Assembly: GCA_903893855.1 (NCBI GenBank)
Contig: CAITNV010000023.1
Coordinates: 1-53,396 of the forward strand
Reading direction: 5' to 3'
Source of the DNA: Candidatus Tayloriibacteriota bacterium
GTDB taxonomy: Bacteria > Patescibacteriota > Minisyncoccia > Phycocordibacterales > PALSA-1337
DNA length: 53,396 nt
Part shown: one piece after another, positions 2,099 to 52,795 of the stretch
How the letters are laid out: the number at the start of each line of letters is the position of its first letter
Numbering within the stretch: position 1 is the first letter of the stretch
The notes under the pieces: generated by a model
Told to the model about the DNA's origin: nothing
The model's input: only the letters and a program-made list of their open reading frames with translations
Databases searched by the model: none
Position numbers and translations under genes: made by a program

Positions 2099-3430
2099 TT
2101 ATTGGGTATCAATAGTGATTTTTGATACGGAATCAGGAAACGTATGTCTCCAGAACGGGGTTATTATAGCACGAGCATTGGCAATTGTGCTATACCTATT
2201 GAAAATAGCTTTACTGTCAGCTACTGGAACGCCAGATAAAGCCTTAATAAGGCTGTCTTTTTGAAAAGTACCCGTTATCTTAACGTGACCATTAAGAGCG
2301 AAAGCTATAGGATCTCCTGTCTGATTCTTCAAATTGGCTGTAAAAAGACTAGGGTTAATAGGCGTAAATACCAAGGATTCTACACCAGAAAGCGTGTAGG
2401 AATTAGCTGGGAATTCAGCCATTTGATTGGGAGCAACATTTCGCATAATATCGGTCTTTTTGAACATAATGCCGTAAAGTATGCCGGTGACAGTAACGGA
2501 AGCAGTTGTCGAGCTTATCATTGCAGTAGTTGAAGTGGCGAAATTAACTGCGTATGCATTGTTATAGAGTACATATCCATCCGGAACCAAGACGTGCAGG
2601 TCACTAGTAAGTTCAGAGCTTATCGTCTGTGAAAGACTCGTTACCGCACTCGCAAGTGATGAAGTAGCAATAATCTGAGTGTACCCCAGATATCCACCTA
2701 CAAGGGATCCATTCGGCTTAAGACTACCTGTAATGGCGGTGTACTTTGGAGTATTTGCAAATGATTCGACACGAAAGACCGCGCTGGAATCATTTGGTCC
2801 ATAAGAAGTCATATTGTATTGAGCACCCGCATCTTTAGCGACGATGTAGACAGAAGCGGATCCAGTTGTCGTTCCAGTATCGGTTTTGTGAATCCCCGGA
2901 ACTGTAACTGGATTAGCGGTGACATATAATTGCCCGCGATTATTAGAAAGTAGCGTACCTTGAGGCAATTTCTGAGATGAAGAGCTGTAATTATTGGTAA
3001 TGATGATTTGTCCCCAAGCTTTTTTCTCAACTGAAGGACCTTGGGTTGCTTGCACCGTGGTACTAGCGATCTCATTGGTCTGAATAATCTGATATGGGAA
3101 AGGTGCAGTGTCTTTTGCGGCATTATATGCCCCATTCACCATAATATCTGCGGTTTTTGGGGTAACGACCACAACCGCTTTATCGTAAATATAGGTAAAA
3201 ATGACGTATATACTTGCGCAACAGATCACAAGCGCCAAAACAATGCCAAAAATAGTGCGCCTGCGTAACATTCGTCTACGCTTATTAAAATGACGAAAAG
3301 GCTCAGCGTCAGGCTGGCGCTGTTTACGCTTCGGAGAGACTATTTTTGGTTCGGTTTCTGGTTCAGGTTCAGTGTGAATTCGATGAACCTTAACACGGAC
3401 CATATCTTGTAATACTTTTTTTTCTGGCAT
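2099..3430 (-). CDS. membrane-anchored baseplate-J-like/CPR surface protein
   Basis: Basic N-terminus, one TM segment (FGIVLALVICCASIYVIFTYIY), long Ser/Thr-rich beta region resembling CPR baseplate-J-like proteins. Confidence 0.6.
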   Translation of the reverse strand: MPEKKVLQDMVRVKVHRIHTEPEPETEPKIVSPKRKQRQPDAEPFRHFNKRRRMLRRRTIFGIVLALVICCASIYVIFTYIYDKAVVVVTPKTADIMVNGAYNAAKDTAPFPYQIIQTNEIASTTVQATQGPSVEKKAWGQIIITNNYSSSSQKLPQGTLLSNNRGQLYVTANPVTVPGIHKTDTGTTTGSASVYIVAKDAGAQYNMTSYGPNDSSAVFRVESFANTPKYTAITGSLKPNGSLVGGYLGYTQIIATSSLASAVTSLSQTISSELTSDLHVLVPDGYVLYNNAYAVNFATSTTAMISSTTASVTVTGILYGIMFKKTDIMRNVAPNQMAEFPANSYTLSGVESLVFTPINPSLFTANLKNQTGDPIAFALNGHVKITGTFQKDSLIKALSGVPVADSKAIFNRYSTIANARAIITPFWRHTFPDSVSKITIDTQ

Positions 3431-16025: not shown

Positions 16026-18986
16026 CTAGCCGATGACGAAGTTGATAAGACGACCCTTGACATAAATGACTTTTTTGATGTTATTACTATATACTTTATC
16101 CTTAATTCCGTCAAGGTTTAGGGCCTTTTCTTTGACATATGCCTCTGCTTGAGCGTCAGTCATACCCGCGATATCCGTTGCGGGGAATTCGAAGCGAGTG
16201 CGAGTTTTACCGTTGATTTGCACAGGTATTGTGATATTTGCATCGGCAATCTTCGCAGGGTCAAAGACTGGCCAAGGCTCAGTATGAATGGACTTTTTAT
16301 TCCCCATACTTGCCCATAATTCATCAGCCACATGAGGCGCAAAAGGTGCAAGAATAGTAAGTATTATACCATAATGATCTTGCGAAATTGTAGGCATTTT
16401 CTCCATTTCATTAACGGCTATCATGAGTGCTGAGACTGCAGTGTTAAAGTGCATAGTCTCTATATCTTCAGAAACTTTCTTTATCGTGCGATGGACGAGT
16501 TTGTCGGCTTCGGCACTGGTAGTATTCCCCGCCACTTCTTGAAGCACCCCTGCTTTACTTTTTTTGGTGTCTAACGCGACCTTCTCTCGAAGCTTCCAAA
16601 CACGCTCGATGAATCTTCGAGTTCCCACGATACCATTCTCATCCCAAGCAATAGCCTGATCGAAAGGTCCCATGAACATTTCATACAAGCGAAGTGCATC
16701 TGCACCAACTGCTTCAACGATACCATCAGGGTTGACCACATTACCCTTCGACTTCGACATTTTCTCACCTCCCTTTGCAAGGATAAGGCCGTGTGAAGTG
16801 CGCTTTGCATACGGTTCATTGGTAGGCACAAGCTTTTGATCAAAGAGGAATTTATGCCAGAAGCGAGAATAGAGGAGGTGGAGCGTAGTGTGCTCCATGC
16901 CGCCATTGTACCAATCGACGGGAGTCCAGAATTTTAATTTATCTGCCGCTGCGAACTCTTTTTTATTCTTAGCATCAGTGTAACGAAGATAATACCACGA
17001 TGAACCAGCCCAATTCGGCATAGTGTCAGTCTCGCGCTTGGCTTTGCCTTTACACTTTGGACATTTAGTATTGACCCATGAGTCGATAGCAGCGAGGGGT
17101 GATTCACCTGTCTCAGTTGGTTTATAGTTCTTCACCTTCGGAAGCTTCACCGGCAAATCCTTCACCGGCACCGGTACGATACCGCACTTATCACAATGAA
17201 CAACTGGAATCGGCTCACCCCAATAACGCTGGCGAGAGAAGACCCAATCGCGAAGCTTGTAGTTCACCGCTCGTGTAGCAATGCCCTTATGTACGAGATG
17301 CTCAATAATGTCATTACGAACTTCACTCCACTCTCGGCCTTTGAATTCTTTTGGTTCAATGAGGATGCCGTTTTTTACCGCAGGCTTCGATCGTCCCACT
17401 ACCCTATCCCACACAAGCTTCATGCCTTCATGTGTAAGGAAAGCATCCACCTCAGCTGCCGTTAGCCATGACATACTTTCATGGACATTCTTCTCTTCTT
17501 CAGTAATTTCTCGACGATCGCCGTTTTTTAATTTAAATAAAGCAGGCGTAAAATGCGCAAAACGATTTTGTCCTTTCGCTACTTGGTAAAACTTAGCATG
17601 AATAGTGCCACCAAGGATCTTCTCAAAATGTGCGCTGGTATAGCCAGTCTCTTCAGCAATCTCACGAACGCCTGCAACACTCGGTTCTTCGCCCTTTTCA
17701 ATGCCACCAACGACGAAGCCTTGCCATTTCACACCCTTAAGGCTCACACAAAGATATTTATCCTCTGCCCAGTGCTTCACGATACATACCACTGCATTAC
17801 GCTCTACAATAGGCATGTCGTGACGGAAAGCATCGTCACCGCCCACAGTGACTGCGAGAGGCTCAGCGACCTCGTGGAGCGGTATAGAGTACTTCTTCGC
17901 GAATTTATAGTCTCGCTCATCATGAGCGCTACAATTGACCATACCGCTACCATAGTCGGCAAGAGCATACGATGCCACCCAGATCGGAAGATCTCGCCCA
18001 AGTCCTGCATAATTCTCTATATATCGGCCGGTAAATATGCCTTCGAGATCAGTATCGATGTCGAATTTATTCTCAAGCTTCTTTTGCTTGATCTTTGCGA
18101 CGAGCTCGAGGACGGGCTTCTCATATGAAGTTCCCTTTACGAGCTTCTCTACGAGCGGATGTTCAGGTGCGATAACGGTAAATGTCTCCGCACAATAAGT
18201 CTGAGGTACAGAATTATACATCTCAACGGTTATGCCGAGGTCTTTGATCTTACATTTAAAATTAACTCCTTCGCTTCGACCGATCCAATTGCGCTGTTGG
18301 GTCTTAATCTGCTCGAGATAGTCAACAGCGTCAAGGTCTTTGTGAAGCCGGTCTGCATACTTGGTAATAGCGAGCATCCACTGTTCTTTCTCTCGCTTCT
18401 CAACTGCGGTGCCGCAACGTTCGCATTTACCATCGATCACTTCTTCATTGGCAAGACCGATGAGGTCCTTCGGACACCAGTTAATGGTCATGCGCTTCTT
18501 ATACGCAAGGCCAGCATCGAGGAGACGAAGGAAAATCCACTGCGTCCATTTATAATACTTAGGGTCGGTAGTATTGATCTCTCGATCCCAGTCAAATGAG
18601 AAACCGAGCGACTTCAACTGTCGGCGGAAATTGTCAGTGTTGGTCTTCGTAACAATGGCCGGCTGAATTCCGGTCTTAATGGCGTAGTTCTCCGTAGGAA
18701 GACCGAAAGCATCCCAACCAATAGGATAAAGCACGTCATAACCTTCGCGACGACGCTTGTGAGATATGATGTCCATTGCAGTGTTGCTTCGAATATGGCC
18801 AACATGAAGACCGTCACCAGATGGATATGGGAATTCGATCAGGGCGTAGAATTTTTTCGCGGGCAGAGTGGCTTTCGCGGTTTTTTTCGCTGCCGTTTTC
18901 TTTGGGTCAAGCGCTTTAAAAAGCTTTTTCTTTTCCCACACCTTCTGCCATTTCTTCTCTATTTTTTTGTGATCGTATGTTTGCAT
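16026..18986 (-). CDS. leuS: leucyl-tRNA synthetase with inserted Nudix hydrolase domain
   Basis: YPSGDGLHVGHIRSNTAMD (HIGH), KMSKSKGNVVNPD (KMSKS); internal Nudix box GGIEKGEEPSVAGVREIAEETGY in the editing region; start MQTYDHKK. Confidence 0.95.
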   Translation of the reverse strand: MQTYDHKKIEKKWQKVWEKKKLFKALDPKKTAAKKTAKATLPAKKFYALIEFPYPSGDGLHVGHIRSNTAMDIISHKRRREGYDVLYPIGWDAFGLPTENYAIKTGIQPAIVTKTNTDNFRRQLKSLGFSFDWDREINTTDPKYYKWTQWIFLRLLDAGLAYKKRMTINWCPKDLIGLANEEVIDGKCERCGTAVEKREKEQWMLAITKYADRLHKDLDAVDYLEQIKTQQRNWIGRSEGVNFKCKIKDLGITVEMYNSVPQTYCAETFTVIAPEHPLVEKLVKGTSYEKPVLELVAKIKQKKLENKFDIDTDLEGIFTGRYIENYAGLGRDLPIWVASYALADYGSGMVNCSAHDERDYKFAKKYSIPLHEVAEPLAVTVGGDDAFRHDMPIVERNAVVCIVKHWAEDKYLCVSLKGVKWQGFVVGGIEKGEEPSVAGVREIAEETGYTSAHFEKILGGTIHAKFYQVAKGQNRFAHFTPALFKLKNGDRREITEEEKNVHESMSWLTAAEVDAFLTHEGMKLVWDRVVGRSKPAVKNGILIEPKEFKGREWSEVRNDIIEHLVHKGIATRAVNYKLRDWVFSRQRYWGEPIPVVHCDKCGIVPVPVKDLPVKLPKVKNYKPTETGESPLAAIDSWVNTKCPKCKGKAKRETDTMPNWAGSSWYYLRYTDAKNKKEFAAADKLKFWTPVDWYNGGMEHTTLHLLYSRFWHKFLFDQKLVPTNEPYAKRTSHGLILAKGGEKMSKSKGNVVNPDGIVEAVGADALRLYEMFMGPFDQAIAWDENGIVGTRRFIERVWKLREKVALDTKKSKAGVLQEVAGNTTSAEADKLVHRTIKKVSEDIETMHFNTAVSALMIAVNEMEKMPTISQDHYGIILTILAPFAPHVADELWASMGNKKSIHTEPWPVFDPAKIADANITIPVQINGKTRTRFEFPATDIAGMTDAQAEAYVKEKALNLDGIKDKVYSNNIKKVIYVKGRLINFVIG

Positions 18987-19012
18987 ATATGTATATGTCC
19001 TTTGACTATATA

Positions 19013-19050
19013 ATAAAAAAAGACCGCTCACAAGGGAGCGGAATTTTGAC
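19013..19050 (-). terminator. rho-independent terminator downstream of the 49-aa ORF
   Basis: Minus strand CCGCTCCCTTGTGAGCGG followed by TCTTTTTTT. Confidence 0.7.
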
Positions 19051-26043: not shown

Positions 26044-26583
26044 CTAGTACGTAGCTCGTCGGAAAGGGATGAAACAAATCAGCACGAGACTGATCAGAAG
26101 CATCAGTAGTGTCCAGCCACCATCAGGCGCTGAGGCGGGAACGGGCGGAGGTGCCCAATGTGCTCCGAATGTTGCATCGAAATAACCGCCGCCAATCCCT
26201 CGAATGGAATCGATCCCCACGATGGCGTGGTTACCAACCCCATCAAACCACGATAAGTGGAAGAACGTAAGACCTGAGATTTGATCCCACTCGAGGGGGC
26301 CAAATGTGGAAGCCGACGACGGATCGTAGATGATTTTGCCGATATTCGGTGTGATGACATAACCACCGAGAACGTCATTGACGTTGCCGTTCACGTTCGA
26401 TGCCTCGGCAAGAAAAAGCTTGCCAGAATAGCCCGGATCTGCACCGTAAATGTCGAACTCGAAGCTTGACCCATTCACGGTGCTGACCTGAAACAAATTG
26501 CCGATGAGGAGAATAACCGCCAAGCATAGGGCCGAAAAGCCCTTATAGCTGGCGCCGACGTAAACTGAAATATGATTTTTCAT
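26044..26583 (-). CDS. secreted protein with PEP/VPDSG-CTERM-like sorting signal
   Basis: N-terminal hydrophobic signal; C-terminus APDGGWTLLMLLISLVLICFIPFRRATY (motif, TM, basic tail). Start uncertain (26583 ATG or 26640 GTG). Confidence 0.6.
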   Translation of the reverse strand: MKNHISVYVGASYKGFSALCLAVILLIGNLFQVSTVNGSSFEFDIYGADPGYSGKLFLAEASNVNGNVNDVLGGYVITPNIGKIIYDPSSASTFGPLEWDQISGLTFFHLSWFDGVGNHAIVGIDSIRGIGGGYFDATFGAHWAPPPVPASAPDGGWTLLMLLISLVLICFIPFRRATY

Positions 26584-32531: not shown

Positions 32532-32604
32532 TGGACCCTACAGGACTCGAACCTGCCACCCCCTCATTGCAAATGAGGTGCTCTACCAGATGAGCTAAGG
32601 GCCC
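32532..32604 (-). tRNA. tRNA-Ala (anticodon TGC)
   Basis: GGGCCCT acceptor, TAGCTCATCTGGTAGAGCA D-arm, CTCATTTGCAATGAG anticodon arm, GCAGGTTCGAGTCCTGT T-arm. Confidence 0.96.
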
Positions 32605-43280: not shown

Positions 43281-44336
43281 AATTAGAATGAATCATTTTC
43301 TTTTGTTTCTCCGAATTTCTCGGAGATTTTTTTGTTTACGACAAAGGGTTAAGGCTTCAGAAGGGGTTTGAAAGTCGAGGCATTCCATGAATCGATCGTT
43401 AAGCTTCTTTTCCATCTTCTTCCAGAATGTAGGAGGATATTTTGAAATATCACTTCCTTTGGGAACGTCATCACGTATCTCTCCATTTACATTTTCAATT
43501 GATCCTTTCTCCCATGAATGGTAGGGGTGGCAAAAATATATCCTGATACTGAGTTCTTTCTCGAGCTCTTTGTGCCGTACGAAGAGGATATCGTTGTCAG
43601 TGGTTCCTGTCTTCCACTCAGAATACCTTTCTTTGATCTTCCACATCGCTTTGTGGATGGCAGGTACGGTCACGTCATATATCGGTTCGAAAAATGATAC
43701 ACGTAACTTACGATCAGTAGCTGTGAGTACGATCCCTTTTCCTCCTTTCCCTGATACGATGAAATCGAACTCTGCATGCCCGACTCTCATCCTTTCGTTG
43801 ATATACTTAGGTCGTTTGTCGATGAAGGTTCTACCATCAAGGGTACCTTTGTTACCCCTCTTCTTTCCTCGCTTCTTTTCCTTTTTCAATTTCGCCTCGA
43901 TTTTCCTCCCATACGGAGACTTTATGTACCGATATATGCTCTCTTTTGAGATGTAGGGGATATTCTTTTCTCTTTTGTATCTGAGCCTCCCTGAAATACC
44001 TTCAGGTGACTGTCCTGCAAGGAGTGATATCTCAACAAATTCCTTAAGTCTTTTGTCCTCAACAATCTTCATTCCTTGGTATTTTGCTTCTTGACGACTC
44101 ACGTATGCCTTGTGCTTTGCCTTCAGGGGATCATAGATACCATTTACTTTGTTTCTCTCTACTTCATTCCATATTGCTGATGATGCTCGTTGGAGAGCGT
44201 CTCCCACATCTTCATATGAGTATCCTTTCTTTCTCAAGAGATATATTTCATTACGTTCACTGTCAGAAAACCGCGAGAAGTTTCTGGTTCTTAAGTTTTT
44301 TTCATAGGTACAGAATACAGGAGATTCATTCTAATT
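43281..44336 (-). mobile_element. IS30-family insertion sequence
   Basis: 14-bp perfect terminal inverted repeats AATTAGAATGAATC (43281-43294) / GATTCATTCTAATT (44323-44336) flanking an IS30 transposase. Confidence 0.85.
43293..44237 (-). CDS. IS30-family transposase (N-terminus out of frame with the upstream ATG)
   Basis: DDE motifs (HAEFDFIVSG, TDNDILF, HPYHSWEKGSIENVNGEIR). Homologous N-terminus continues upstream of TTG 44237 without an in-frame ATG. Confidence 0.85.
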   Translation of the reverse strand: MRKKGYSYEDVGDALQRASSAIWNEVERNKVNGIYDPLKAKHKAYVSRQEAKYQGMKIVEDKRLKEFVEISLLAGQSPEGISGRLRYKREKNIPYISKESIYRYIKSPYGRKIEAKLKKEKKRGKKRGNKGTLDGRTFIDKRPKYINERMRVGHAEFDFIVSGKGGKGIVLTATDRKLRVSFFEPIYDVTVPAIHKAMWKIKERYSEWKTGTTDNDILFVRHKELEKELSIRIYFCHPYHSWEKGSIENVNGEIRDDVPKGSDISKYPPTFWKKMEKKLNDRFMECLDFQTPSEALTLCRKQKNLREIRRNKRK

Positions 44337-48433: not shown

Positions 48434-48964
48434 CTACTCAATCGTATCGATCTCGCGAATCCGACGCGCGTGACGCTCATCACCTGAGAAAGGTGTCTCG
48501 AGAAATATCTCGACTGCCGCTTTCGCTTCATCATCAGTAACGAACCGCGCACCAAGTGAAAGAATATTCGCATCATTATGCTCACGAGCAAGACGAACAA
48601 TGTCGAGGCTGCTTCTATTCTCACTCTTACCCGCGCCGACCTCATCATTCTTCTCAATATAGCCACCACCATAATAGACTGCAGCACGCACGCTTGGGAA
48701 ACGATTACATAGCATAGCTTCGCCATTGCCAGAACCGCCGAGCACGATAGCGGTGTATTTCTCTGGCTCAGTAGCGACACGCATAGCAACAGGCGTGAGG
48801 ATAACAGGATAATCATCTTCGGGATCGAGAGTCTTCGCCCCCATATCCTCCACGTCATAGCCGAGGCTCTTTATGTGTGCGGTAAGGATGGCTTTAAGCT
48901 CAAAGCCTGCATGATCAGAAGCAATGATCACCTTGTGTTTAGTTCCGGTAGTTTTTTTATTCAT
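48434..48964 (-). CDS. rpiB: RpiB/LacA/LacB-family sugar-phosphate isomerase
   Basis: VIIASDHAGFELKAILTAHIKSLGYDVEDMG, VLGGSGNGEAMLCNRFPSVRAAVYYG. Confidence 0.92.
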   Translation of the reverse strand: MNKKTTGTKHKVIIASDHAGFELKAILTAHIKSLGYDVEDMGAKTLDPEDDYPVILTPVAMRVATEPEKYTAIVLGGSGNGEAMLCNRFPSVRAAVYYGGGYIEKNDEVGAGKSENRSSLDIVRLAREHNDANILSLGARFVTDDEAKAAVEIFLETPFSGDERHARRIREIDTIE

Positions 48965-48974
48965 AAAATTAAAA

Positions 48975-49006
48975 CGATAGTGAATACCTGTAGTATAGCA
49001 CTATCG
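48975..49006. promoter_or_regulatory. inverted repeat around the rpiB -10 box (candidate operator)
   Basis: CGATAGTG (48975-48982) / CACTATCG (48999-49006) enclosing TATACT on the minus strand. Confidence 0.45.
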
Positions 49007-49023
49007 TGGGCTATTGTATAAAA

Positions 49024-49475
49024 ATTTTGCCCCGCTGCGACTTTGATCTCGAGAGATCGTTGTCGCTGCGGGGCTGGGTGAAGTGCGCCTTATTTTGATG
49101 TCAGTCTAATCCATTCGTCGGTGCTGTGGGGTAGCACCTGTACGAGCGAATTTAGACCTAAACCGACTCGCCGCATGCCATAAGAGGGCAGCCAATAAAC
49201 GGCGGCGTAGTCGGAGAAACATCATCCGATGATAGGGCGGTCAATCACCACGTCTGTGGATGTCGGCTAATATGCTGACGGGACTGCAAGCAGCCCGTGC
49301 TGATAGCTAGCCGTCACTGGGCCCGCCGCTCAGAACAATTTTTGGGCGGGGCCGGTGGACATCCGGGATCGGCGGCCGGGGTCGGCGCCGTGAATCGAGG
49401 CCGGGGAGACATTATATTTTTGGAAGGTGCCGAGACAGGGACGGGACGGGTCTTTCATTTGGAGGCCTTTTTGTT
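49024..49475. ncRNA. unidentified large structured RNA locus (strand unresolved, + favoured)
   Basis: GC-rich region with many nested inverted repeats: 49029-49035/49068-49074, 49104-49109/49152-49157, 49163-49168/49209-49214, 49262-49267/49274-49279; no credible ORF. Confidence 0.6.
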
Positions 49476-49585
49476 GGGTGGAGCACACTGGCTTGTATAC
49501 TTCACCTTGTTATTTTGCCGTTTGATCGGGTGAATACACTATAACGCTGGTCCCTCAGTAGGGGGCGTACCGGATCAAGATTGAT

Positions 49586-50635
49586 CTCCCCACCTTTAAA
49601 TACGAAGGGTTGGTATCATTGAATATATGGCTAACAAAAAGAAGCACCTGTCGGATCAGGAGAGATTTTGTATCGAAAAAATGCTTGGAGTTGGAGATAG
49701 TTTTGGAAAGGTTGCGCACACTCTCGGGAGAGGTCTGTCCACCATAAGCGAAGAGGTAAACAGTAATGGAGGAAGGAACGCATATACTGCAGAGAAAGCA
49801 ATACGGAGAGCATACTGGAAGCAGTATCGGAAGAAGCGAAACTGTAACAAAGTAGCTCTCGATGGACACCTTACAAAGTTTGTAGAGAAGAAACTAGAAA
49901 AAGGATGGTCACCCGAGAGTATATCATCTCGGCTTGAAGTACAATCAGGACTTGCATATGCAAGTGCCAAAAGCATCCGCAAGTTCATCAGCAGACGACC
50001 GGGACTTGAGAGATTCCTCTTCTGGGAAAGAAATGATGTGAAAAGCGGTCCCAAAAGAGGAAACAAAATATTTCTCACTGATCCAGAACGTAAATTCATA
50101 GAACTACGCCCTCTCAGGGCTCTCTATGAGTATGGGCATTGGGAAATGGACTTCATTGTATCGAAACACAATGCATGGGTGCTTCTTGTCTGTGTTGAGA
50201 AGTACAGCAAAATACTCAAGCTTGCGCTCATTCCGAACAGAACCACTGACGTGGTACATGAGACCCTTAGGGAGCTTCTTGGGGGATATACCATCAAAAG
50301 CATTACCACTGACAATGATATCGCTTTCAGACAGTGGAGAGAGCTTGAGAGTATACTCTGTACTCATATCTACTTCTGTCACCCCTACCATTCATGGGAA
50401 AAGGGACTGGTGGAGAATACCAACAGATGGATCCGTGAGTTCATACCAAAAAAGACCAACTTGGGGTTGATCTCTTCTGGATTCATTACTGATATTGAAA
50501 ATTACTTTAATCACAAACCGAGGGAGTGTCTCGGAGGATATACCGCATACGAAGTGATGATGAAAAAAGAGTGTGGTAGAATGGTCGAATCATTAGAAAT
50601 TAATTTACCTAGTCTTCGTATTATGGGGTAGGGAG
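49586..50635 (+). mobile_element. IS30-family insertion sequence
   Basis: Imperfect 22-bp terminal inverted repeats (17/22): CTCCCCACCTTTAAATACGAAG (49586-49607) vs reverse complement of 50614-50635. Confidence 0.8.
49627..50631 (+). CDS. IS30-family transposase
   Basis: N-terminal HTH; DDE motifs (HWEMDFIVSKH, TTDNDIAF, HPYHSWEKGLVENTNRWIREF). Confidence 0.93.
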   Translation: MANKKKHLSDQERFCIEKMLGVGDSFGKVAHTLGRGLSTISEEVNSNGGRNAYTAEKAIRRAYWKQYRKKRNCNKVALDGHLTKFVEKKLEKGWSPESISSRLEVQSGLAYASAKSIRKFISRRPGLERFLFWERNDVKSGPKRGNKIFLTDPERKFIELRPLRALYEYGHWEMDFIVSKHNAWVLLVCVEKYSKILKLALIPNRTTDVVHETLRELLGGYTIKSITTDNDIAFRQWRELESILCTHIYFCHPYHSWEKGLVENTNRWIREFIPKKTNLGLISSGFITDIENYFNHKPRECLGGYTAYEVMMKKECGRMVESLEINLPSLRIMG

Positions 50636-50655
50636 AGGAACCTTTCTTGCAAGAA

Positions 50656-50730: not shown

Positions 50731-51513
50731 CTACGGCTGATACGCTTTCACATGTAAGATCTTATCTACAGTTACAAAGGTATACCCTTTCGCACGCAGG
50801 TCCTCAATAAGGGTCGATAACGCTTCAATTGTATTATTTCGAGAATATGATGCACCAGTTTCGTGCCCATCGTGGAAGAGGATTATATTGTTTGGACGGA
50901 TATTATTCATAACCGTAGCGATGATTGTAGTTGAAGAATTAGTATTGACCCAATCTTTCGTATCGATATCCCAACCGACTACCGTATACCCTTCATGTTC
51001 AATCTCCCCCACCATATTTGGACTTGTTGCGCCATACGGAGCCCTGAACAATTCTGGAATGAGGCCGGTTGTGGTAGCGATAATTTCTTCAGCACGACTG
51101 ACATCGACTCGTAACGTAGTCGTCGCTTCGCTCGGCAAAGCGCGTGTGTGACTAAAGCTATGATTCCCTACAACGTCGCCGTCTGCGATTTCTCTTCGTA
51201 TTTCGTCGGGGTGCAGTTTGGCATTTTTACCAATTAAAAAGAAAGTTGCCGGCACCTTCTCGCGTTCAAGGATAGTTAAAATAGCATCGGTGCTTGTGCC
51301 GTATGGCCCATCGTCAAATGTGAGAGCGACGTATTTTGGTAGCTGGATTTTAGTTGATAGCGAAATTTTGCTGCCATTTTCCTCAATAGAAGATATTGTT
51401 GGTTCGGCACCCATCATATGCAGATGAGCGAATGCTGGCACCAATAAAATAACAAAAACTGCAATCGATATTATTAGGACAAAACCACCGCCGTTTTTGT
51501 CTATTTTTTCCAT
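50731..51513 (-). CDS. polysaccharide deacetylase family protein
   Basis: KYVALTFDDGPYGTSTDAIL, GNHSFSHTRAL, RAPYGATSPNM; N-terminal TM. Confidence 0.94.
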   Translation of the reverse strand: MEKIDKNGGGFVLIISIAVFVILLVPAFAHLHMMGAEPTISSIEENGSKISLSTKIQLPKYVALTFDDGPYGTSTDAILTILEREKVPATFFLIGKNAKLHPDEIRREIADGDVVGNHSFSHTRALPSEATTTLRVDVSRAEEIIATTTGLIPELFRAPYGATSPNMVGEIEHEGYTVVGWDIDTKDWVNTNSSTTIIATVMNNIRPNNIILFHDGHETGASYSRNNTIEALSTLIEDLRAKGYTFVTVDKILHVKAYQP

Positions 51514-51781: not shown

Positions 51782-52795
51782 ATGGATCATCAACCTTCAT
51801 TTGAACAAATTATCGGTGGGACTCAGGAAGATCAAGACGCACTGAGAATTAAAGCCGCTAAAGCAACAGAGCGAGGCATAGAAGAAAAATATGAACAATA
51901 CATTGTCGAAAGAACCTCATCAGAAGATGCGGCTATTAAAAGTGCAGTATCTTATACGAGTGAGGTAGCCCGACAGTATGGATCGACTAAGCAAGTCGAT
52001 GAAAAAAGAATATTTTTATTGAAATCGGGAGCAATTCAAGAGGTTAGTAAGAATGATATGAGGAAGGGGTTTCATGATCCATTCAATCAGATTATTGCTG
52101 TCGATAGATACGAATCAATCGCAGTACTCGCAGTAAGAGTCGCCCATGAACTTTTTCATATGCATAGCTATCACTCAGCTCAAATATTTCAAGACACTAA
52201 TAGTGCCATATACCGAAGTGGGATAGGGATGTTAGGTCGAGAACAAGAGTGGGCATATTTTTCTTTTGCAGAAGAAGCTATTATTGCAACACTTTCAAAA
52301 CGATTTTTCGATGAAGTGATATGTCACGATCCACTCTATGAAGAGGATATCAGATATACCGGCTTGATTAAAGATTGGATAATTAATAATATAAAAGAGG
52401 CTGAATTACCTGAGGATAAAATGAGTTCCCGCATGTCATTCATACAAGAAATACTTATTTTTCCGAATGGTAAAAGCGTGTTTGAAGTATTAATTGATCA
52501 AGAAAAAAAATTCGCCATCAAATTGGGTTATTTTAGTGATAGGTATGAAAAAGAACTCAAGCAAGGAAACATTATGCGAGAGCGACGTAAAGAACGTGAA
52601 GCGTTTTCGATCGTGCTCGATAGAATAATATATCAATCGAAAGGTGCCATAACAAACAAAGAAATCCTATTTGATGCTTTTGCTCGAGCACACTTTACTG
52701 GCAACTATATTCCTCTCGCTAGACTTATTGATGGGGCTCTCGGTAAAGGCTCGTTCAGAGCAATTGCAACCGAACTAGGGGAAAAGTATGACTAA
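51782..52795 (+). CDS. putative zinc metalloprotease-like protein
   Basis: HELFHMHSYH (HExxH) and downstream FAEEAIIATLSKRF; start MDHQPSF chosen (51725 ORF start also possible). Confidence 0.55.
   Translation: MDHQPSFEQIIGGTQEDQDALRIKAAKATERGIEEKYEQYIVERTSSEDAAIKSAVSYTSEVARQYGSTKQVDEKRIFLLKSGAIQEVSKNDMRKGFHDPFNQIIAVDRYESIAVLAVRVAHELFHMHSYHSAQIFQDTNSAIYRSGIGMLGREQEWAYFSFAEEAIIATLSKRFFDEVICHDPLYEEDIRYTGLIKDWIINNIKEAELPEDKMSSRMSFIQEILIFPNGKSVFEVLIDQEKKFAIKLGYFSDRYEKELKQGNIMRERRKEREAFSIVLDRIIYQSKGAITNKEILFDAFARAHFTGNYIPLARLIDGALGKGSFRAIATELGEKYD

What the first reader, a model, noticed from the sequence alone, without database searches (positions are those of the whole stretch)
49024..49580. 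Unidentified large, densely structured non-coding locus
The ~450 nt between rpiB and an IS30 copy are much more GC-rich than the surroundings and have no credible ORF. Seen directly: a long near-perfect hairpin GCCCCGCtGCGAC...GTCGCtGCGGGGC (49029-49074); a nested stem GTCTAA/TTAGAC + ATTCG/CGAAT + GGTGCT/AGCACC (49104-49157); CCGACT/AGTCGG + CCGC/GCGG + TGCC/GGCA (49163-49214); ATCAT/ATGAT; CCAC/GTGG; GTCgGC/GCtGAC; ACGGGaCTG/CAGcCCGT; and GGCCCGCC/GGGCGGGGCC. Purine-rich loops, overall G-richness and a GGGTCT...AGGCCT-TTTTT end favour the + strand. The long 5' hairpin could instead be a minus-strand terminator. I could not match it to tmRNA (no T-arm, no CCA end), RNase P RNA (no GAAAGUC/ACAGAA cores) or SRP RNA. 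It may be a lineage-specific large RNA.
Basis: partly seen in the sequence, partly recalled or inferred. Interest (0 to 1): 0.85.

Follow-up and report, generated by a model that had tools for sequence, protein, structure and literature searches.

The report
Orphan structured non-coding locus beside rpiB
A GC-rich, gene-free stretch of about 340-450 bases in an uncultured parcubacterium folds more strongly than chance, about as strongly as the genome's own tmRNA, but has no detectable relative anywhere searched, so it is a good candidate for a one-lineage RNA gene rather than a proven one.

Summary
Between rpiB (minus strand) and an IS30 copy lies a GC-rich stretch without a credible ORF. Its GC is 57.7% at 49029-49475; other intergenic gaps in the window average 36% (sd 6%). 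The named stems are there. Two corrections apply. The excess structure is confined to 49029-49364 (z -5.3 to -6.1; own tmRNA -4.4, own RNase P -9.0). The G-rich remainder, 49365-49582, folds no better than shuffled sequence. The strand is also undetermined: both strands fold into the same two-domain architecture, and promoter and terminator cues conflict. No Rfam family matches credibly. Genuine RNase P and tmRNA genes lie elsewhere in the genome, which removes those two identities. DNA searches (60 relatives, 399 order and 392 class genomes) and two single-sequence covariance models (299 relatives each; 389 phylum genomes for one) found no homologue. In the one other species of the genus, rpiB follows gapA with no such locus. 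Covariation could therefore not be tested. Best reading: an orphan, lineage-specific structured RNA candidate, probably acting in trans, with transcription and function unshown. Main rival: a non-functional GC-rich relic or insertion that folds well by composition and chance.

The parts
49029..49074 (.). Long near-perfect GC-rich hairpin (7+5+6 bp), flanked outward by AAAAATTTT. Either the 5' hairpin of a plus-strand RNA or the 3' hairpin of a minus-strand RNA.
   Evidence: Pair probability 0.96-1.0; z -6.6 on plus and -6.3 on minus. Not a classical terminator: on the minus strand four A separate stem and T run, unlike the flush terminators after this genome's RNase P and tmRNA genes.
49077..49249 (.). 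Domain I: closing stem GGTGA/TCACC, then CGCCTTATT/GATAGGGCG, then TGATGT/ACATCA, with a three-way junction carrying hairpin A (49104-49157) and hairpin B (49163-49214).
   Evidence: Same architecture predicted on both strands; closing stem p 0.98, inner stems p 0.58-0.97; z for 49075-49250 -3.5 plus, -3.8 minus.
49258..49364 (.). Domain II: three-way junction closed by GGATGTC/GACATCC with two arms (49265-49312 and 49315-49357).
   Evidence: Closing stem p 0.97-0.98 on both strands; z -4.55 plus, -3.06 minus.
49365..49582 (.). G-rich (plus strand) remainder up to the IS. Not more structured than chance. Contains a weak terminator-like site on plus (49448-49472) and a perfect TATAAT on minus (49411-49416).
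   Evidence: z 0.0 plus, -1.3 minus; terminator scan 4 found against 1.7 +/- 1.2 expected; TATAAT.
48434..48964 (-). rpiB (ribose-5-phosphate isomerase B), with its own promoter TATACA-17-TATACT (TG-extended) at 49020-48992, directly beside the long hairpin.
   Evidence: Orthologues in 59 of 61 related genomes; promoter scan.
49585..50636 (+). IS30-family insertion sequence; transposase 49627-50631, imperfect terminal repeats TCTCCC(C/T)ACC..AATACGAAG. It bounds the locus on the right.
   Evidence: Second copy starts at the same base on contig C49; inverted repeat arms; HTH_38 and rve domains.

Best explanation
An orphan, lineage-specific structured non-coding RNA gene. A transcript of about 340-450 nt would carry one rigid terminal hairpin plus two autonomous three-way-junction domains, and would act in trans as a stable RNA or RNP scaffold rather than as a leader. 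No gene lies downstream on the plus strand except the inserted IS, and rpiB on the minus strand has its own promoter just past the hairpin. Shown: position, composition, lack of ORF, statistically unusual fold, absence of known-family matches and of relatives. Inferred: that it is transcribed, that it acts in trans and that it has a function. The strand is open. Plus: start near 49029, end near 49473. Minus: start near 49404, end at the hairpin.
For: GC 57.7% against 36% for intergenic DNA in a 44% GC window, with sharp AT-rich flanks. Fold excess z -6.1 and -5.3 for 49029-49364, no shuffle as good; own tmRNA -4.4 and RNase P -9.0. Of 356 scanned 180-nt windows the ones starting at 48901, which take in the hairpin, are the most and fourth most extreme. 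Well-defined helices. No protein families. Trinucleotide bias is that of the genome, 63rd percentile, so it is not obviously foreign or a chimeric contig piece. High GC plus length is the signature by which structured RNAs are found in AT-rich intergenic regions (PMC11109978).
Against: No homologue by DNA or covariance model in any genome searched, including the only other held species of the genus, so there is no covariation and no sign of selection. Without the long hairpin, z falls to -3.5 to -4.4, a level that about 1-2.5% of windows in this sequence reach. Strand is not resolved and both promoter candidates lack a -35 box; the plus -10 (49017-49022) overlaps the rpiB -35.
Confidence: 0.5

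Rival explanations
1. A non-functional GC-rich intergenic relic, such as an old insertion or decayed element trimmed by the IS30 insertion, whose folding is a by-product of GC content plus a few chance or element-derived inverted repeats.
For: Absent from the same-genus species, where rpiB directly follows gapA. No relatives anywhere searched. Sharp GC boundaries, as an insertion would give. It sits beside an IS in an IS-bearing genome. The right part has no structure excess.
Against: Dinucleotide-preserving shuffles already control for composition and still give z -5 to -6 for 49029-49364. No matching protein family, no repeat copy in the genome, no foreign trinucleotide bias.
Confidence: 0.3
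2. A minus-strand element: an RNA of about 380 nt starting near 49404 from the TATAAT at 49416-49411, ending at the long hairpin, possibly reading through and tuning rpiB as a long leader.
For: Hairpin A is far better defined on minus (p 0.98 against 0.2). Perfect TATAAT in GC-rich DNA. The unstructured 49365-49582 would then be upstream DNA. Whole-interval z is better on minus (-5.36 against -3.65).
Against: No -35 box. Four A between stem and T run, unlike this genome's terminators. rpiB has its own extended -10 promoter downstream of the hairpin, so a leader role is unlikely. Chance expectation of TATAAT in the flanking 3.6 kb is 2.7.
Confidence: 0.15
3. A member of a known RNA family too diverged for Rfam models.
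For: Parcubacterial RNAs score low even when genuine: own RNase P 111.6 bits against a cut-off of 100.
Against: Permissive cmscan gave only implausible eukaryotic, viral or archaeal families far below cut-off. tmRNA and RNase P are accounted for elsewhere.
Confidence: 0.05

Closest known systems
Orphan candidate structured RNAs found by GC content and length of intergenic regions (GC-IGR pipeline, PMC11109978)
   Same: Long, GC-rich, ORF-free intergenic region in a less GC-rich genome; stable predicted structure.
   Different: As far as I know the published motifs rest on alignments of several homologues; this has none.
Large ornate bacterial RNAs OLE, ROOL, GOLLD (PMC12286853, PMC9723947)
   Same: Long structured bacterial RNA with several multi-stem junctions and no ORF.
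   Different: Those are about 600 to more than 800 nt and recurrent, with conserved sequence blocks; ROOL and GOLLD sit in phages or prophages, often near tRNA islands. This is about 340-450 nt, single-copy, beside rpiB, and no such Rfam model matches.
tmRNA and RNase P RNA of the same genome
   Same: Similar size and comparable fold excess.
   Different: Both are present elsewhere (contigs C4 and C37); the locus matches neither model.

Membership tests
Any Rfam 15 family | Covariance-model score at or above the gathering score | tested here: not met
   Only the tRNA at 32532-32604 in the whole window; permissive scans give GlsR18 20.6 bits against 100 and similar noise.
tmRNA | tRNA-like domain plus tag ORF (ARAGORN, RF00023) | tested here: not met
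   No ARAGORN tmRNA in the window; genuine tmRNA on C4 with a tag peptide.
RNase P RNA | RF00010 core | tested here: not met
   No match at the locus; genuine gene on C37.
OLE, ROOL, GOLLD, group I and II introns, HEARO | Match to the corresponding Rfam model | tested here: not met
   None of these appears among the matches of the permissive scans.
Evolutionarily conserved structured ncRNA | Homologues with compensatory base changes | tested here: inconclusive
   No homologue found, so covariation is untestable.
Expressed ncRNA gene | Discrete transcript | not testable with these tools
   No RNA-seq available here.
Intrinsic terminator (minus strand) for the 49029-49074 hairpin | GC stem followed at once by a T run | tested here: inconclusive
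   Stem is followed by AAAATTTTTAT; this genome's clear terminators have flush T runs.

The most novel reading that the evidence does not exclude
A previously undescribed class of structured RNA of about 340-450 nt, with a terminal hairpin and two three-way-junction domains, restricted to one parcubacterial lineage with a 0.94 Mb genome, where keeping such an RNA would imply an essential or symbiosis-related role.
Probability: 0.3. Interest if true: 0.6.

Novelty: new member of a known kind. Interest (0 to 1): 0.36.

Why it matters
Patescibacteria have very small genomes, so a dedicated large RNA with no counterpart elsewhere would be notable and might be tied to their host-dependent lifestyle. 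As it stands it is one locus in one genome without conservation evidence, which limits its weight.

Tried and rejected
Viral-contig pattern scans: five were run; four gave nothing, and the two hits of the fifth (CATGCCATAAGAGGGCA; L151, L152) match only that 15-17 nt hairpin and are chance. Phage and plasmid blastn: only short GC-rich chance matches. The one covariance hit in a relative (G100, 18 bits, E 0.0017 per genome over 299 genomes) overlaps an ORF of 79 aa and lacks most helices: rejected. Order-wide blastn hits at E 0.005-0.1 are 17-47 nt scraps. Nothing in rpiB-flanking loci of other bacteria. Integron attC site considered for hairpin A (GTCTAAT...TTTAGAC): the AAC/GTT core is absent (from memory of the attC consensus). 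Coding or decayed-gene reading: no family hits. Long-range closing of 49077-49091 with 49562-49576 in the full-length fold: set aside because the 3' part shows no structure excess. One long shuffle run timed out and was replaced by a smaller one.

Full report
Setting. The window is one whole contig (C23) of a 0.94 Mb, 62-contig genome. The nearest named records by rpiB are Candidatus Yonathbacteria, Zambryskibacteria and Kaiserbacteria, so it is a parcubacterium. The locus lies between rpiB (48434-48964, minus) and an IS30-family element. A second, truncated copy on contig C49 fixes the left end of the IS at about 49583-49585, and imperfect terminal repeats put its right end near 50636. Before that insertion the gap ran on to the stop of a polysaccharide deacetylase gene (50731-51513, minus).

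Observation. The stretch is the GC maximum of the window and far above other intergenic gaps (57.7% against 35.7% +/- 6.3%), even above the genome's own RNase P (49.7%) and tmRNA (46.4%) genes; the flanks are 28-29% GC. No open frame in it resembles a known protein family.

How much structure. Cut into parts, the excess over dinucleotide-preserving shuffles is strong for the long hairpin (z about -6.5), clear for domain I (-3.5 to -3.8) and domain II (-3.1 to -4.6), and nil for 49365-49582 (0.0 and -1.3). For 49029-49364 z is -6.1 and -5.3 on plus and -5.0 on minus. The same measure gives -4.4 for the genome's tmRNA and -9.0 for its RNase P. Without the hairpin it is -3.5 to -4.4; the 1st and 2.5th percentiles of 356 windows are -4.9 and -3.5. 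So the locus is unusual, but part of the signal is the one long hairpin.

Strand. Both strands give the same architecture, with 113 and 116 pairs and 7 G-U pairs each. For plus: U-U instead of A-A mismatches in the long hairpin, a weak flush T-run site at 49448-49472, and a TATAAA six bases before 49029, which however overlaps the -35 of the rpiB promoter. For minus: hairpin A is better defined, there is a perfect TATAAT at 49416-49411, and the unstructured part would fall upstream. I leave the strand open.

Identity. Rfam has no credible match. tmRNA and RNase P are accounted for elsewhere. No DNA homologue appears in 60 relatives, 399 order and 392 class genomes (the sets overlap). Single-sequence covariance models of 49163-49364 (R1) and 49077-49249 (R2) find only the query in 299 relatives each, apart from one weak R1 hit (G100) judged chance, and R1 finds only the query in 389 phylum genomes. 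In the only other held species of the genus rpiB follows gapA directly.

Interpretation. The best reading is an orphan structured RNA gene of one lineage, acting in trans, at even odds. The leading rival is a relic that folds well by chance. Transcription, strand and function are inferred, not shown; covariation could not be tested because there are no relatives.

Noticed in passing
window 16026-19031 (minus): Leucyl-tRNA synthetase with a NUDIX domain (PF00293, E 9e-9, residues 417-514) embedded after the editing domain and before the rest of the catalytic domain: an unusual fusion.
   Followed up: partly
window 48975-49006: Perfect 8-bp inverted repeat CGATAGTG/CACTATCG with a 16-bp gap around the rpiB extended -10 promoter, a possible operator or 5' UTR stem.
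   Followed up: no
window 43350-44273 (minus): A second, diverged IS30-like transposase (36% identity to the one at 49627-50631); further relatives lie on contigs C54, C11, C9, C49 and C4, so the family is numerous in this genome.
   Followed up: partly
window 26401-26580 (minus), 51901-52080 (plus), 2101-2280 (minus): Other windows with unusually stable predicted folds (z -5.5, -5.95, -4.5) in the background scan.
   Followed up: no
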